DNA of 5,316 bases from a bacterium (GTDB taxonomy: Bacteria; UBA9089; CG2-30-40-21; SBAY01), in assembly GCA_040757115.1 (NCBI GenBank), contig JBFLYA010000257.1, positions 1 through 5,316 of the forward strand, written 5' to 3'. How positions within the stretch are numbered: position 1 is the stretch's first letter; every line of letters starts with the position of its first letter. This document shows positions 1-5,316 of the stretch, piece after piece. Both the position numbers and the translations under genes were made by a program. Below the pieces are notes generated by a model, which saw only the letters and a program-made list of their open reading frames with translations, was not told the DNA's origin and did not search any database.

Positions 1-34
1 GAGGGGTATGAGGGTCGGAGGGGTATGAGGGTCG
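1..34. repeat. 17-bp tandem direct repeat, two perfect copies
   Basis: The unit GAGGGGTATGAGGGTCG occurs at 1-17 and again, without a mismatch, at 18-34. The array begins at the window edge, so further copies may lie upstream. The end of the second unit (AGGGTCG, 28-34) is inverted relative to CGACCCT at 62-68, and the similarity continues loosely into the CTCCCTC that follows, so the array also forms one arm of an imperfect inverted repeat. No coding role is apparent. Confidence 0.85.
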
Positions 35-531
35 CATCTTGAATTGTGAATTATCTCTGTTCGACCCTTCTCCCTCTTAACTCTCTATATTTTTAGACAA
101 TTATGTCCATTTGGCTTGCCTTCCCTTATTTCTTATGATAAAATGGGAAAAAATAGAATATGAAAATTCTACCTCATCCTTCATTTAATGTCCCATAGGG
201 ACAATATATCGGTAAATGGCTTTCCACAAATTTTCTACCAATATATCGTTCCTACGGAACTGATTGATTTATCTATCTATTCCTACCGATATTATGTTCC
301 TAACGGAACGATTATTCTCATACCTTATTTATGGGTATTATCCTATGTAAACTTCCAGTTAATAACCGCTATAATTGGTTATTTGGATGCATTATTTCCC
401 TCCCCAATTTAAAACTTAGTATTGGGTTAAGTAAGTTCTTTCACAGTTTAAGGGATATACCATTACAAGATGTGTTCCCTTCCATCTCTCCATCATTTAT
501 CTTTGACCATACCTCTATCTTTTGCTTAAAA
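35..531. other. AT-rich intergenic stretch without a credible gene
   Basis: This stretch is visibly AT-rich. Short open frames cross it (188-412 and 331-561, plus strand), but they read straight through palindromic repeats, have no ribosome binding site and encode low-complexity residues unlike a protein family. Besides the hairpin-repeat cluster it holds a 7-bp stem AATAACC/GGTTATT (361-367 with 377-383, 9-base loop). A minus-strand open stretch at 441-536 has no start codon and is not called. I see no promoter or RNA gene here. Confidence 0.6.
190..309. repeat. Cluster of three degenerate hairpin repeats (REP/BIME-like)
   Basis: Three copies share one design: a 5-bp hairpin GTYCC-(3-4 nt)-GGRAC followed by a tail close to ATATATYGGTA. 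Copy A is on the plus strand (190-214, hairpin GTCCC/GGGAC). Copies B (236-260) and C (284-309) are on the minus strand, with hairpin GTTCC/GGAAC. A and B therefore face each other as an inverted pair about 20 bp apart, and B and C are direct repeats. Paired hairpins with a conserved tail recall bacterial REP/BIME elements, and similar motifs are, from memory, dispersed in several environmental phyla. No transposase is present in the window, so the family assignment is tentative. Confidence 0.75.
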
Positions 532-605
532 GGAATGTTGGGGTCAGACCGTGAATGTTGAATGTAGAAGAAACTGCTTTCTACATTCAAGGTCTGACCC
601 TAATC
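532..605. repeat. 74-bp palindromic element, copy 1 (MITE/REP-like)
   Basis: This copy is identical base for base to 1765-1838. It folds into a long interrupted hairpin. The outer arms are GGGTCAGACC (541-550) and GGTCTGACCC (591-600). The inner arms are 558-569 and 579-590, a perfect 12-bp match, with a loop at 570-578. Seven unpaired bases (551-557) interrupt only the left side and look like a duplication, since TGAATGT occurs twice in tandem at 552-565. There is no ORF inside. The structure fits a non-autonomous element moved in trans, possibly by a REP-associated Y1 transposase, although none is visible here. Confidence 0.85.
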
Positions 606-655
606 TTATCTTTATCGCCCCACCGTTTTAATTTAAAAATTATTTCACAAAAAGT

Positions 656-684
656 TTGACTTTTTTGATTAAATTAAGTATAAT
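656..684 (+). promoter_or_regulatory. Sigma-70-type promoter for the small protein/nucleotidyltransferase operon
   Basis: TTGACT (656-661) and TATAAT (679-684) are separated by exactly 17 bp, which is nearly the bacterial housekeeping consensus. The surroundings are AT-rich. Transcription would begin near 691-693, leaving a leader of about 75 nt before the ATG at 767. This is the only strong promoter I can see in the window, and it points at the two-gene operon. Confidence 0.85.
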
Positions 685-747
685 ACAGGTATGTTGAAAC
701 ATTTTGGATAAAAAATTGTAACCTGTGCAGGTAACTTTAGACCTGTG
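685..747 (+). promoter_or_regulatory. Candidate operator/leader with repeated ACCTGT boxes
   Basis: ACCTGTG occurs at 721-727 and again at 741-747, 20 bp apart, about two helical turns. The first copy is half of a palindrome, ACCTG-TG-CAGGT (721-732). The inverse, ACAGGT, lies at 685-690, touching the -10 element and the start of transcription. The leader also contains the palindrome ATGTT-GA-AACAT (691-702). Phased boxes around a transcription start suggest a repressor site, possibly autoregulation by the operon's own proteins. The motifs are short and this is inference; an RNA pairing of 685-690 with 721-726 is an alternative. Confidence 0.35.
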
Positions 748-753
748 TCCGAA

Positions 754-759
754 AAGGAG
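754..759 (+). promoter_or_regulatory. Ribosome binding site that fixes the start of the 64-aa gene
   Basis: AAGGAG ends seven bases before the ATG at 767. An in-frame ATG at 725 has no such site and would give 14 extra residues, and the in-frame ATG at 842 also lacks one. The start at 767 is therefore preferred. Confidence 0.85.
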
Positions 760-766
760 ATTGAAG

Positions 767-961
767 ATGAAGGAACTTTTTAAAAACAGACCATATTTGG
801 AAGGAAATATGATTGAAGAAGAAACTTTAGATTGGTACAATATGTCTCCTGTAGAACGTTTTATTGAATCTCAGAAACTATGGGAGGTCTTTGTGCTTCT
901 TGGAGGAAATTATGAGCCAGAGCCCGATAGCCAGAGTCCTTTCCACTTTTTTAAAACATAA
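767..961 (+). CDS. Small acidic protein, putative partner/antitoxin of the downstream nucleotidyltransferase
   Basis: Encodes 64 residues. The N-terminal part is charged (residues 1-25), followed by a predicted amphipathic helix around MSPVERFIESQKLWEVF (26-42). The C-terminal signature is LGGNYEPEPDSQSPFHF (45-61). I recall similar short proteins with a PEPD-QSPF tail encoded just ahead of minimal nucleotidyltransferases in many bacteria, but I know no characterised member. There is no signal peptide, membrane segment or DNA-binding motif. It is the first gene of the operon behind the 656-684 promoter, and its last 50 bp overlap the next gene in another frame. Small size, acidity, first position and translational coupling suit an antitoxin or accessory subunit. 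That role is inferred from context only. Confidence 0.8.
   Translation: MKELFKNRPYLEGNMIEEETLDWYNMSPVERFIESQKLWEVFVLLGGNYEPEPDSQSPFHFFKT
902..906 (+). promoter_or_regulatory. Ribosome binding site inside the upstream gene, fixing the nucleotidyltransferase start
   Basis: GGAGG ends five bases before the ATG at 912. The same bases are part of the Gly46-Gly47 codons (GGA GGA) of the upstream protein. The longer in-frame start at 864 has no comparable site and would add 16 residues that do not resemble the family, so 912 is chosen. The arrangement implies translational coupling of the two genes. Confidence 0.8.
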
Positions 962-1667
962 GGTAAAAGCCTTGTTGATTGGAGGGCAGGCATGTATTCT
1001 TTATGGAGCAGCAGAATTTAGCCGTGACATTGACATAACAATTATGCTCTCTCCTGAAAATCTTAAAAATCTCAAGATTGCTTTAGATGACCTTAAGGCT
1101 GAAAGAATTTTTGTCCCTGATATTTCTGAAGAGATATTATTGAAAGGGCATGCCTGTCATTTTCGATGTCAGAGAGAAGATATAAAAGGGTTGAGGATTG
1201 ATATTATAGGGATAATGCGGGGGGTAAGTTCCTTTCCTGAGTTATGGAAACATCGAGAAGAGGTTGAGTTACCTGAAATAGGAAAAGTAGCCGTAATAGG
1301 TCTTCCTGAGCTTGTTAAGGCTAAGAAAACCCAGCGAGATAAAGATTGGTTAATGATTAGACGCCTAATTGAAGGAGATATTTATAGGGCATCTGTTAAT
1401 CCACCACAAGACAAAGTATGTTTCTGGCTCCTTGAATGTAGAACACCAGAATTGTTAATATCATTGGCTAACAAATATACTCTTATTGCTTCGCAACTGG
1501 TGGAAAGACATCCACTTTTGCAATTTGCTATTGAAGGTAAGAGAGAGGAAATTCAAAAGCTTCTACGGGAAGAAGAGGATAAAGAAAGAATTCTCGACCA
1601 GCAATATTGGGCGCCACTGAAAGCCGAACTGGAGGTATGGCGACATAACATCGATAAGAACAGGTAA
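912..1667 (+). CDS. Minimal nucleotidyltransferase-fold protein (AbiEii/DUF6036-like)
   Basis: Encodes 251 residues. After a short helix, LLIGGQACILYG (21-32) supplies the Gly-Gly signature of the polymerase-beta-type nucleotidyltransferase fold. RDIDITI (38-44) gives the metal-binding pair Asp39 and Asp41, and LRIDIIG (94-100) gives the third carboxylate, Asp97. IGLPELVKAKK follows, as in AbiEii-like and DUF6036 proteins, then a helical, charged C-terminus containing DQQYWAPLKAELE. All expected acidic residues are present, so the enzyme is probably active, transferring a nucleotide to an unknown RNA or protein target; some relatives are toxins of conflict systems. The start at 912 overlaps the 64-aa gene by 50 bp. 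Translation ends at in-frame tandem stops (TAA TAG, 1665-1670). Base composition is lower in GC than in the minus-strand genes, which is compatible with transfer. The fold is well supported; substrate and toxin role are not. Confidence 0.88.
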   Translation: MSQSPIARVLSTFLKHKVKALLIGGQACILYGAAEFSRDIDITIMLSPENLKNLKIALDDLKAERIFVPDISEEILLKGHACHFRCQREDIKGLRIDIIGIMRGVSSFPELWKHREEVELPEIGKVAVIGLPELVKAKKTQRDKDWLMIRRLIEGDIYRASVNPPQDKVCFWLLECRTPELLISLANKYTLIASQLVERHPLLQFAIEGKREEIQKLLREEEDKERILDQQYWAPLKAELEVWRHNIDKNR

Positions 1668-1740
1668 TAGTTCACGACACATAAATTAATGGTTTATCTC
1701 TAACAATTTTCGATTTTTAATTTCAAAGTAACTATTCTGC

Positions 1741-1764
1741 CACTGATTAACACGGATTAGCACG
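1741..1764. repeat. 10-bp tandem degenerate repeat next to the second 74-bp element
   Basis: GATTAACACG (1745-1754) is followed directly by GATTAGCACG (1755-1764), one mismatch apart, preceded by CACT (1741-1744). The second unit abuts the 74-bp element at 1765. From memory, the phrase resembles a motif widely scattered in intergenic DNA of environmental bacteria, so this may be a remnant of another dispersed element. The rest of the gap after the nucleotidyltransferase gene (1668-1740) shows nothing I can name. Confidence 0.6.
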
Positions 1765-1838
1765 GGAATGTTGGGGTCAGACCGTGAATGTTGAATGTAG
1801 AAGAAACTGCTTTCTACATTCAAGGTCTGACCCTAATC
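1765..1838. repeat. 74-bp palindromic element, copy 2 (MITE/REP-like)
   Basis: This is a perfect duplicate of 532-605 in the same orientation. Outer arms are 1774-1783 with 1824-1833, inner arms 1791-1802 with 1812-1823, and the loop is 1803-1811. It shares the same seven-base asymmetric insert (1784-1790). It lies between two convergent genes and ends one base before the stop codon of the TPR gene, so the hairpin would be transcribed at the 3' end of that mRNA. No U-tract follows on either strand, so it is not a standard intrinsic terminator, although it may protect or terminate transcripts. No obvious target-site duplication flanks it. Confidence 0.85.
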
Positions 1839-2966
1839 CTACAACTCTCTGTATCTTTCAATCTGATTACTGTATGCCGGATGTTTGTCCTTAAAACGAT
1901 GAAGATCAAAGAGCACCAGGTGCTTGATGTCTGCTTTTGTCGCTATCTCAATTGCCTTTGCCTCCTGGGCATATTTATCTGCCTCCTCCTGTCTGCCTGA
2001 AAGAAAATGAGTCACAGAAAGGCTTAACAGGGCGTAATATCTCTTTTCCTCAATACTGTAGAGTGACACAGCTTCTCTTCCTGCCTCAAAAAACCAAACA
2101 CCATTATTCTTATCAAGCTTTGCAATGTTATCATCATTAATCAGACTCACAAGCCTGTCCTGGTATCTAACTGCCATGTCAAGATCACCCATCAACCAGT
2201 AGGCAATTGCTATCTCACAGTATGTCAGGAGAAATTCATAATCCAGGGTCAGGATCAGTTGGTAATTCTCTATGGCATTGCGATAATCCCCTTTTTTCAG
2301 GTAAAGGTAAGCCAGATTATCCAGGTAATGCTCATTCCATTTGGAAAGACGCACTGCCTGTTTGTACATCTTAAGGGCATCTTCTGTTTTGTTTTGCTTC
2401 TGATAGATAATTCCCAATCCAAAATAGGCTGAGGCTGTTTCTGTGGCAGATTTCAGGGCTTTTTTATAGTACCCCTCAGCCATTGCCATATTATCTAAGC
2501 TGGCATAGAGATCACCCATCAGGACAAGGGCATGGGGGTCTTCCCTGTCCTCTTCTAAAATAAATTCAATCTGCCTTTCAACAACCTCAGGGATATAATC
2601 CTCCCCCCTCATGTATTCATACACTTCTGTTTTAAAGATACCCATCTGTGCCTCAGGGTTCATCTTATCCAGATTCAGAACATTATTAAATTCCCTTTTT
2701 GCGGCTTTGTAGCGGCTGTTGTCGAGAAAGGATTTGCCAAGTTTAAGATGGCGTTTTACCATCTCCTTCTGATTCTTTAGCTTGGCTAACTTTTCATCAT
2801 ATTCAGCCTGTTCCACGGCAATTCTTTTCAGGGGATGAAATATCGATACCTTATATATAACCCCTGCTATCAACATGGCAATAATAGAAAGGGATACACA
2901 AAGTACCGGTAAATGGGTATTTATCCAATTGATAGTTTTTGATGTTTTTTGAAGGATATTGTTCAT
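1839..2966 (-). CDS. Membrane-anchored tetratricopeptide-repeat (TPR) protein
   Basis: Encodes 375 residues. A hydrophilic N-terminus is followed by one hydrophobic segment (about 19-38) lacking a cleavage motif, so it is probably a signal anchor. Next comes a charged, possibly coiled-coil linker (47-72). TPR units follow at about 70-103, 144-177, 178-211, 212-245, 246-279 and 309-342; the best are GDLYASLDNMAMAEGYYKKA and LAYLYLKKGDYRNAIENYQ. There is no catalytic domain, so it is probably a protein-protein scaffold at the inner membrane; which side the TPRs face is unclear. An in-frame stop lies just upstream (2973-2975), so the ATG at 2964-2966 is the earliest start, although no good ribosome binding site precedes it. 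It lies 109 bp after the caspase gene in the same direction and may share its transcript. The stop codon abuts the 74-bp repeat. Confidence 0.88.
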   Translation of the reverse strand: MNNILQKTSKTINWINTHLPVLCVSLSIIAMLIAGVIYKVSIFHPLKRIAVEQAEYDEKLAKLKNQKEMVKRHLKLGKSFLDNSRYKAAKREFNNVLNLDKMNPEAQMGIFKTEVYEYMRGEDYIPEVVERQIEFILEEDREDPHALVLMGDLYASLDNMAMAEGYYKKALKSATETASAYFGLGIIYQKQNKTEDALKMYKQAVRLSKWNEHYLDNLAYLYLKKGDYRNAIENYQLILTLDYEFLLTYCEIAIAYWLMGDLDMAVRYQDRLVSLINDDNIAKLDKNNGVWFFEAGREAVSLYSIEEKRYYALLSLSVTHFLSGRQEEADKYAQEAKAIEIATKADIKHLVLFDLHRFKDKHPAYSNQIERYREL

Positions 2967-2980
2967 AGTTTTTCAAGTTA

Positions 2981-3057
2981 AGCTGTTCGTCGTAACCCGG
3001 TTTAGCGGGTGCTCTCAGCAGAAACAACCGCATAAATGCGGTTACTACGAACAAACT
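2981..3057. repeat. Palindromic intergenic element with two internal hairpins (MITE-like)
   Basis: The terminal inverted repeats GTTCGTCGTAACC (2985-2997) and GGTTACTACGAAC (3040-3052) match at 12 of 13 positions, and the pairing continues loosely outward. Inside are two stems: ACCCG/CGGGT (2995-2999 with 3006-3010) and the perfect 8-bp AACCGCAT/ATGCGGTT (3026-3033 with 3036-3043). It nearly fills the gap between the caspase and TPR genes. From memory, GTTCGTAGTAACCGC-type palindromes are dispersed in several environmental bacteria. Read on the minus strand, the 8-bp stem is followed by GTTTCT, a poor U-tract, so it could attenuate or process the joint transcript; this is not certain. Confidence 0.8.
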
Positions 3058-3075
3058 TTCAAATTCCTACCAGCA

Positions 3076-5316
3076 TTAACGCCCTTCTATGTTGGCAATC
3101 GCGAAGAAATCACCCGTGATATTTCGCATGGGAATCTGCTCAAATCCCCACCGCTTTTTGGTAATTTTAGGAACTTCTTCCCTTACAAAGTCTGAAAGCT
3201 CATCAATGGTTATAAGGCCATCTTTCTTACTCTCTGCCATTCCCATTATACCCTGCAAGAGAGTATAGGTGAATACACCGTGGCCGTTATATCCTTCGGT
3301 TGCTTGCTGTGTATCAGTGGTAGCGGCAAGGCAGGCGCGGCCTGTAGCACGCATCAGTCTGTCAATAGCGGTCTTCTCTTCCATCCCACGCATCTCCCCG
3401 GCAAAAATTCCGGCATAGCAGGTGTCAAGAATGATCAGGCTCTTAAGGGCAGGTATCTCTTCAAGCAAGGATGTGATTTTTTCAGAAGAAAGGCTGGCCT
3501 TCTTCAGGGTTTCCCTGTTTTCATAGACCGCTTCATAAGGGACGAAATAGTAATCCCCCTCACTCCCCATACCATGCCCGGCCAGATAGAGAACAAAGAC
3601 ATCACTCGTTTTGACCTTTTTGGAGAGTGTTCTAAATGCCTTCTCAATATTTGTAGTGTTCGCCTCTTCGTTTATCAGAGGTTTAATCTCTATATCCCTG
3701 AACAGTCCCTTTCCACTCTTCTTTAATTCACGGGCAATTGTCTGAGCATCGGTATGGGCAAACTTGAGTTTCAACGCCCTGTCTCTGTAGTCTGTAATGC
3801 CCACAGCCAGCACATAAAGGCAGGGGGCATCCTTAAGTGGGTCGTTCACTATAATGGTGATCTCTTCAGGCTTTGAGGCGATATTGCCCTGCTTGTTATA
3901 GGATGTTACTGAAATGGTGTTTGTTCCATGATTAAGGGTGAATTTCTTAGGTATTACACCCGATGGGCGGCTGATTTCGAGACCTGCAGGGCGGGTCTCT
4001 TCTACAGAGGAAGCCACCAGCACACCGTTTACCCGGTACTCAGTCCTTCCAATGCCGCCTCCCCTGTCACTTAGAGAAAAGTCAAGGGTAAAGTCCCTGG
4101 TGTTTATCCGGGTATCCTTTGAAAGAATCTCTACCACAGGCGGCAGGCCTGAGGCAATGAGTTTATCTATGCTGCCGATTCTATCAAGCTCTGCCCGGAT
4201 TTGCCTGTCATATCCACCCTGAATCCTTTTAGCTACCAGGTCAGGCCGGTAAAAGAGGTCATAAACCTGCTCCACGCTTACATAATCAGATTCCCTGTCC
4301 TGTCCGCGATTGATATGATAGCCCACATAGCGGGCACCGCCTTTAGATGAGGTGAAAAAACCATCAGGGCTCCAGGCCACCCACTGTCGGTCAGTGCCAT
4401 AAAACAGGGTCATAAGCAGCCTCCCTGTCTTTACCTCCCAGAGCATTACTGTCTGATCATTTGAGCCTGACACAAGAAGCCTTCCATCAGGGGATACGGC
4501 CACAGCCCATACATCACTGGTGTGGCCAATAAACTGCTGTAGTTCCCTGCCTGTTTGGGTATCGTATGAGGTAAGGACACCGTTATCACCTCCACTGATG
4601 ACTGTTTTTCCATCAGCGGTGAGGGTAAGACTCAGATGCCTGTCGCCAGTAGTGGGATCTCTAGTGATTTCATGGATGACCTCGCCATCTTTCAGTATTT
4701 GGAGGGTTGGGTGAATCATTCCGTCTTCTGTGCCTATGGAGATAGTGCCGAGCTTTTCTATGGCTCTTATATAGCCATCAGCTTCTGAGGAGTCAGGCCC
4801 GGGGCACAAATCACCGGTTAGACCGTTGATGATGAAGCTTTTTTCAAGGGGGCCATATTCAAACAAACTCTTCTGTTCATATATATTCCCCCAGGCAATA
4901 GCCCTTCCATCCCTGGAAAAGCCCACACTCCAGACACACCGGCCATTGCCAATTAGCTTCTTCATTGCCTTACCGGTCATTAAGTCCCAGAGCCATATCT
5001 CATTATCACTACCTCCGCCTGTGGCCGCAATAGAGCCGTCAGGTGAGATGGCTGTGGCAATGACAATGTTTGTGTGCCCCGCAAAGCTTGAGATGCTCTT
5101 GCCTGAGGGGATGGAGAAGACATTAACAGTATATCCGCTACCATATCCACAGCCAGTAAGCACATATTTCCCATCCGGTGAAACAGTCAGGCTGTCAACA
5201 GTTGTTTCCTGCCTGGCAAGCACCTTAATAAACCTGCCTGTTCTGCCGTCCCAGAGGCGGATGGTTTTATCATCACTGCCTGAAAGGATGTATCTGCCAT
5301 CAGGTGTAAAGGCAGC
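3076..5316 (-). CDS. WD40-repeat/Ig-like/caspase (peptidase C14) fusion, 5' end outside the window
   Basis: The frame stays open to the window edge, so 746 residues are visible and the N-terminus is missing. The GTG at 5221-5223 lies within a WD40 repeat and is not a start. Residues 1 to about 325 form WD40 blades with repeated SPDG and G(S/G)-D-T(I/V)-LW motifs, for example SGSDDKTIRLWD and SGSNDQTVMLWE. Residues about 385-490 look like an Ig-like beta domain ending GTNTISVTSYN. A C14 caspase-like domain occupies about 497-740, with His581 in YLAGHGMG and Cys633 in LDTCYAG, so it is probably an active cysteine peptidase. Its C-terminal section has GHGVFTYTLLQGI and DGLITIDEL. WD40-caspase fusions occur in cyanobacteria, planctomycetes and other complex bacteria and are proposed signalling or cell-death effectors. 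The substrate is unknown. No signal peptide can be judged. The TPR gene follows 109 bp downstream. Confidence 0.93.
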   Translation of the reverse strand, partial: AAFTPDGRYILSGSDDKTIRLWDGRTGRFIKVLARQETTVDSLTVSPDGKYVLTGCGYGSGYTVNVFSIPSGKSISSFAGHTNIVIATAISPDGSIAATGGGSDNEIWLWDLMTGKAMKKLIGNGRCVWSVGFSRDGRAIAWGNIYEQKSLFEYGPLEKSFIINGLTGDLCPGPDSSEADGYIRAIEKLGTISIGTEDGMIHPTLQILKDGEVIHEITRDPTTGDRHLSLTLTADGKTVISGGDNGVLTSYDTQTGRELQQFIGHTSDVWAVAVSPDGRLLVSGSNDQTVMLWEVKTGRLLMTLFYGTDRQWVAWSPDGFFTSSKGGARYVGYHINRGQDRESDYVSVEQVYDLFYRPDLVAKRIQGGYDRQIRAELDRIGSIDKLIASGLPPVVEILSKDTRINTRDFTLDFSLSDRGGGIGRTEYRVNGVLVASSVEETRPAGLEISRPSGVIPKKFTLNHGTNTISVTSYNKQGNIASKPEEITIIVNDPLKDAPCLYVLAVGITDYRDRALKLKFAHTDAQTIARELKKSGKGLFRDIEIKPLINEEANTTNIEKAFRTLSKKVKTSDVFVLYLAGHGMGSEGDYYFVPYEAVYENRETLKKASLSSEKITSLLEEIPALKSLIILDTCYAGIFAGEMRGMEEKTAIDRLMRATGRACLAATTDTQQATEGYNGHGVFTYTLLQGIMGMAESKKDGLITIDELSDFVREEVPKITKKRWGFEQIPMRNITGDFFAIANIEGR

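What the first reader, a model, noticed from the sequence alone, without database searches (positions are those of the whole stretch)
532..1838. Two-gene nucleotidyltransferase cassette bracketed by identical 74-bp palindromic repeats
The copies at 532-605 and 1765-1838 are identical and in direct orientation. Between them lie one promoter, the small acidic gene, the nucleotidyltransferase gene and nothing else recognisable. Perfect identity implies recent copying or gene conversion. Direct flanking repeats would let the conflict-like module be lost by recombination or carried as a unit, like a miniature composite element. Mobilisation is inference; the geometry is directly visible.
Basis: partly seen in the sequence, partly recalled or inferred. 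Interest (0 to 1): 0.7.

Follow-up and report, generated by a model that had tools for sequence, protein, structure and literature searches.

The report
Repeat-bracketed mobile nucleotidyltransferase gene pair
A two-gene nucleotidyltransferase module sits between two identical 74-base palindromes; the same gene pair in unrelated bacteria is often bracketed by duplicated pieces of other host sequence, which suggests a mobile, toxin-like module that moves without carrying its own recombinase.

Summary
In detail: 532-605 and 1765-1838 are identical, directly repeated hairpins around one promoter and two overlapping genes. The palindrome is not specific to this unit. It is a dispersed family (15 near-full copies plus about 30 partial matches, clustered, in this 4.3 Mb draft genome), so perfect identity is weak evidence. 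The gene pair is widespread (288 candidate loci, many phyla), with this palindrome in none of 80 loci fetched, and has no Pfam, NCBIfam or PADLOC match. What recurs is bracketing: in 11 of 65 testable loci (2 of 225 control placements; p=2e-6) the pair lies between direct copies of some local sequence, such as the ends of ftsY or mnmG. One Verrucomicrobial genome has an ftsY locus without the pair, while its pair lies elsewhere still flanked by ftsY pieces. In the genus-mate genome the same unit (99.3%) lies at another place between the two palindromes, each later split by a MITE. I favour a mobile toxin-like module that inserts with long target duplication, as proposed for restriction-modification genes, here duplicating a palindrome. 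Independent palindrome insertions next to the pair remain a serious rival. No excision junction was observed; toxicity and mechanism are untested.

The parts
532..605 (+). left copy of the 74-nt palindrome (proposed duplicated target)
   Evidence: identical to 1765-1838; hairpin z -8.2; genome-wide family
656..684 (+). sigma-70-like promoter TTGACT-17-TATAAT
   Evidence: 11/12 consensus matches; consensus match only
767..961 (+). 64-aa small acidic protein gene, partner of the nucleotidyltransferase
   Evidence: partner conserved next to the NTase in G003, G017, G056 and by motif in 62 of 80 loci; no Pfam, NCBIfam or PADLOC match
912..1667 (+). 251-aa MNT/Pol-beta-type nucleotidyltransferase gene
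   Evidence: invariant GGQAC..YGA.EFSRD motif; AlphaFold pLDDT 92.6; best PDB folds MenT1
1765..1838 (+). right copy of the 74-nt palindrome, abutting the stop codon of the TPR gene
   Evidence: the TPR ORF ends at 1839
426..531 (.). left flank; 426-528 found in G001:C196 without palindrome or cassette
   Evidence: homology ends 1-3 nt before the palindrome
1839..2966 (-). TPR-repeat protein gene (right flank)
   Evidence: Pfam TPR; no homologue in G001-G003 at E<=1e-20
3076..5316 (-). WD40-caspase (Peptidase_C14) fusion gene, incomplete at the contig end
   Evidence: Pfam; no homologue in G001-G003 at E<=1e-60

Best explanation
The two genes form a horizontally moving, toxin-antitoxin-like module (MenT1-like nucleotidyltransferase plus small partner) that carries no recombinase. 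It tends to sit between two direct copies of whatever DNA it entered. In other bacteria the bracketing copies are ends of host genes; here the copy is a 74-nt dispersed palindrome. The bracket would arise at insertion, either as a long target duplication or by single-crossover integration of a circle carrying the module plus one copy of the repeat. Recombination between the direct repeats would then allow loss or release and re-entry elsewhere; a dispersed palindrome offers many homologous sites. Shown: repeats, family, recurrence of bracketing, two locations in two related genomes, and an ftsY locus without the pair in one genome whose pair carries ftsY pieces. Inferred: direction of events, circle, RecA dependence, toxicity, addiction.
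For: Bracketing direct repeats (bits>=40) in 11/65 pair loci versus 2/225 shifted control windows (p=1.9e-6; at >=60 bits 9/65 versus 0/225, p=9e-7). The repeats lie tightly outside the pair in most cases and are unrelated between genomes: ftsY 3' end, mnmG 3' end, 5' end of a cytidylyltransferase-like gene, 3' ends of a beta-helix/CBM gene and an FG-GAP gene, PqqD. G100: ftsY at C239 has no pair after it; the pair at C536 is flanked by 26 nt and 182 nt of the ftsY 3' end. G001 holds the unit at another place with both palindromes, each split by a MITE. 64-73% identity among proteins from several phyla suggests transfer. Absent from the plasmid, phage and viral collections searched. Precedent for restriction-modification genes: PMC3031569 and PMC3874152.
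Against: Most loci (about 80%) show no bracketing repeat. In the window, 161 nt and 97 nt separate the genes from the repeats. The palindrome family is clustered and also brackets unrelated segments in this genome (C290, C78, C112), so it could have arrived on its own. No single-palindrome empty site was found; the right flank is missing from relatives and G001 contig C205 ends about 128 nt outside the left palindrome. All the genomes compared closely are drafts, mostly MAGs.
Confidence: 0.45

Rival explanations
1. The palindromes are ordinary REP/MITE-like elements that inserted independently on both sides of a stationary or otherwise acquired gene pair; bracketing is incidental to a clustered family.
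For: 15 near-full plus about 30 partial copies, clustered and same-oriented in C78, C290, C112 around unrelated genes; identical copies also occur on different contigs; copies abut stop codons both here and in C290.
Against: Two near-full copies within 2 kb are rare for random placement; both palindromes accompany the pair at another site in G001; the pair is bracketed by non-palindromic repeats elsewhere.
Confidence: 0.35
2. The palindrome is an active recombination or transposition end (REPIN/HUH, or attC-like) and palindrome-cassette-palindrome is a composite mobile element.
For: Breaks between G000 and G001 fall at or in the palindromes; a related half-arm lies beside integron attC-like sites in C118, C98, C212, C283; Y1 transposase genes exist in the genome.
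Against: Breaks inside palindromes are explained by a MITE with CAGGCTGTTGACA ends and TTGA duplication; no attC core pattern in the window; the palindrome motif was found near only one of six Y1 transposase matches, as a partial match.
Confidence: 0.1
3. Repeat-mediated chromosomal rearrangement, not module mobility, put the unit in different places in G000 and G001. (This can hold together with either origin of the palindromes, so the confidences are not exclusive.)
For: The folC and gltX neighbours are separated in G001 at another 245-bp MITE; the right palindrome in G001 has a hybrid distal arm, GGGTCGAATCTTGA.
Against: Does not explain recurrent brackets around the same pair in other phyla.
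Confidence: 0.3
4. Assembly artefact joining repeat copies.
For: Draft genome in 462 contigs; dispersed repeats break contigs.
Against: G001, a separate assembly, shows the same unit with both palindromes and further MITE insertions.
Confidence: 0.03

Closest known systems
Insertion with long target duplication of restriction-modification genes (Nobusato et al. 2000; Furuta et al. 2010, as cited in PMC3031569 and PMC3874152)
   Same: selfish-type gene module, no own recombinase, flanked by long variable direct duplications of local sequence, linked to rearrangements
   Different: genes are a nucleotidyltransferase pair, not R-M; the duplicated target here is a dispersed palindrome; no single-copy pre-insertion allele of this exact site was found
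MenAT / AbiE nucleotidyltransferase toxin-antitoxin systems
   Same: best PDB fold matches are MenT1 (8an4, 8an5); operon-like arrangement with a partner gene
   Different: no Pfam, NCBIfam or PADLOC match for the window proteins; partner is a 64-aa protein with no match in these libraries; toxicity unknown
REP / REPIN elements with RAYT transposases
   Same: dispersed hairpins in intergenic DNA next to stop codons
   Different: 74 nt and about 15 near-full copies, versus 20-40 bp and usually more than 100 copies; no adjacent RAYT seen
Integron gene cassettes (attC)
   Same: short cassettes between imperfect palindromes; attC-like arrays exist in this genome
   Different: no attC core pattern in the window; hairpin of another sequence

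Membership tests
Insertion with long target duplication | module flanked by long direct duplications of local sequence | tested here: met
   74 nt here; 34-316 nt in other loci, above controls
Insertion with long target duplication | related allele with a single copy and no module | tested here: inconclusive
   G100 ftsY has no pair after it, and its pair elsewhere carries ftsY pieces; no single-palindrome allele of the window site found
Insertion with long target duplication | no transposase or integrase in the unit | tested here: met
   only two recognisable genes between the repeats, neither matching a recombinase family
MenAT / AbiE toxin-antitoxin | MNT/Pol-beta nucleotidyltransferase fold | tested here: met
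   MenT1 E 5e-6, TM up to 0.63 by target length, model pLDDT 92.6
MenAT / AbiE toxin-antitoxin | recognised AbiEi or MenA antitoxin partner | tested here: not met
   small protein has no Pfam, NCBIfam or PADLOC match
MenAT / AbiE toxin-antitoxin | toxicity neutralised by the partner | not testable with these tools
   needs an expression assay
HEPN/MNT | HEPN-domain partner | tested here: not met
   no HEPN match by Pfam
REP/RAYT | short palindromes, usually more than 100 copies per genome, cognate RAYT | tested here: not met
   15 near-full copies, 74 nt; no full palindrome seen beside the Y1 genes; REP definition from the abstracts of PMC2817692 and PMC3733652
Integron cassette | attC with RYYYAAC...GTTRRRY core at the cassette end | tested here: not met
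   no such pair of motifs at 40-160 nt spacing in the window on either strand
Composite IS transposon | flanking insertion sequences with transposase | tested here: not met
   flanks are 74-nt palindromes without a transposase gene

The most novel reading that the evidence does not exclude
An unrecognised, phylum-crossing two-gene nucleotidyltransferase module is itself a recombinase-free mobile element that spreads by long target duplication and re-excision through the duplicated host sequence, possibly stabilised by addiction.
Probability: 0.3. Interest if true: 0.75.

Novelty: new variant of a known kind. Interest (0 to 1): 0.5.

Why it matters
Long target duplication was proposed for restriction-modification genes, and to my knowledge its mechanism is still open. 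A small, strongly conserved gene pair with many bracketed copies in many phyla, and with an ftsY locus lacking the pair in a genome whose pair carries ftsY pieces, would give a clean test case. It also marks a toxin-like family that the profile libraries searched here miss.

Tried and rejected
attC core scan of the window: none. RAYT linkage: Y1 genes exist, and the palindrome motif was found near one of six, as a partial match only. Exact palindrome pattern in genome contigs and viral contigs: nothing, though the own genome may be left out there. NTase in viral contigs, plasmids and phages: nothing. Apparent breakpoints inside the palindromes in G001 first looked like site-specific recombination; they are insertions of a MITE with CAGGCTGTTGACA ends and TTGA target duplication. 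Flank comparison for single insertions of the palindrome (C4, C28) gave no clean empty site. Search of the family of G101 returned only G101. Rfam: no match in the window.

Full report
Observation. The two 74-nt copies are exact, direct and palindromic, and enclose one strong promoter-like site and two overlapping ORFs. The genome (G000, 4.3 Mb, 462 contigs) holds 15 near-full copies and about 30 further partial matches of the palindrome. Copies cluster: three adjacent pairs lie within 2 kb, which random placement gives with P=5e-5. The clusters lie around duplicated TPR genes (C290) and displaced Rhs tips (C78, C112). Pairwise differences among copies are mostly 1-5, and three unlinked pairs are identical in their core, so identity alone does not date the window pair.

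Genes. The nucleotidyltransferase has no match at the family cut-offs in Pfam, NCBIfam or PADLOC; of 38 relatives a few touch DUF6036 or AbiEii weakly, and none matches NCBIfam. Its predicted structure is confident (pLDDT 92.6) and resembles the MenT1 toxin. The small upstream protein is conserved next to it (motif in 62 of 80 loci). Relatives were found in 288 stretches, the 80 fetched ones spanning many phyla and the nearest 64-73% identical, and none in the viral, plasmid or phage collections. None of the 80 fetched loci matched the pattern used for this palindrome. In G003, G017 and G056 the pair also stands without it.

Related genomes. Genus-mate G001 carries the unit, 99.3% identical from 589 to 1823, beside folC. 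Its two palindromes are each interrupted after CTACATTCAA by elements with CAGGCTGTTGACA ends; the same insertion, with TTGA duplicated, is seen in C56. The folC region of G000 lacks the unit, but that region is itself rearranged at another 245-bp repeat. The window's TPR and caspase genes have no homologue in G001-G003 at the thresholds used. The left flank exists in G001:C196 and stops 1-3 nt before the palindrome edge, with neither palindrome nor cassette. So both genomes have the unit between the palindromes but in different neighbourhoods.

Bracketing as a general trait. In the 80 fetched loci, direct repeats flank the pair in an unexpected number. Against windows of the same size and separation elsewhere in the same loci, the counts are 11/65 versus 2/225 at 40 bits and 9/65 versus 0/225 at 60 bits (Fisher p 1.9e-6 and 9e-7). 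The repeats are pieces of local genes, and usually one copy belongs to a long gene and the other is a remnant: ftsY 3' end (L159, L186), mnmG 3' end (L172), a beta-helix/CBM gene (L140), an FG-GAP gene (L134), the 5' end of a cytidylyltransferase-like gene (L192); in L145 both copies are PqqD-like ORFs. In four Verrucomicrobial genomes the pair carries the last codons of ftsY, or a close variant, at its left edge. In G101 it follows ftsY without a downstream copy; in G098 and G099 it is bracketed; in G100 the ftsY locus has no pair after it, and the pair sits elsewhere between 26 nt and 182 nt of ftsY 3' sequence. I read this as movement of the pair together with its bracketing sequence; transfer from another species carrying the ftsY-linked form would look the same. 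These four cases share ancestry, so the 65 loci are not fully independent.

Mechanism. [quoted passage not shown] also PMC3031569). Single-crossover integration of a circle carrying the module and one repeat gives the same product and would need only homologous recombination; I cannot separate the two. In the window the duplicated sequence would be the palindrome. The main rival is that this clustered palindrome family arrived independently on both sides. I put the first at 0.45 and the rival at 0.35.

Limits. Drafts and MAGs only; no reads; no single-palindrome allele; no functional data. Taxon names of loci come from MAG record titles. The control is within-locus; a matched set of other mobile gene pairs was not tested.

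Noticed in passing
L052 (C118), L053 (C98), L051 (C212), L055 (C283): Integron-like repeats (CTAACCC...CGTTAG) are preceded by a conserved half-arm of the palindrome family (TTAGGGTCAAACCGTGAATGTGGAATGCACAATAA); C118 also has two ORFs that look like a broken integron integrase.
   Followed up: partly
L087, L092, L093, L098 (G001): A MITE/IS with CAGGCTGTTGACA ends inserts repeatedly at the same point inside the palindrome, with TTGA duplicated where both ends were seen; C339 shows a variant junction.
   Followed up: partly
G001, many contigs; L102 about 4700-4960: A repeat of about 245 bp with GTAACCGTTCA/TGAACGGTTAC ends (67 matches at E<=0.001 to the query holding it) sits at a synteny break between G000 and G001.
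   Followed up: partly
window 1-80: A second palindrome type (GGGTCGCATCTTGAATTG...GTTCGACCC); its arm resembles the hybrid right palindrome in G001:C205.
   Followed up: no
window 1839-5316: TPR gene beside a WD40-caspase (Peptidase_C14) fusion; neither has a homologue in G001-G003 at the thresholds used.
   Followed up: partly
L042 (C290) 2531-2598 and 4137-4205: Palindrome copies 96% identical to the query sit at the stop codons of clearly diverged tandem TPR paralogues, suggesting later insertion or gene conversion at matching places.
   Followed up: no
L202 (G100:C239), after ftsY: A DNA-methyltransferase-like ORF follows ftsY where relatives carry the nucleotidyltransferase pair: possible hotspot.
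   Followed up: no
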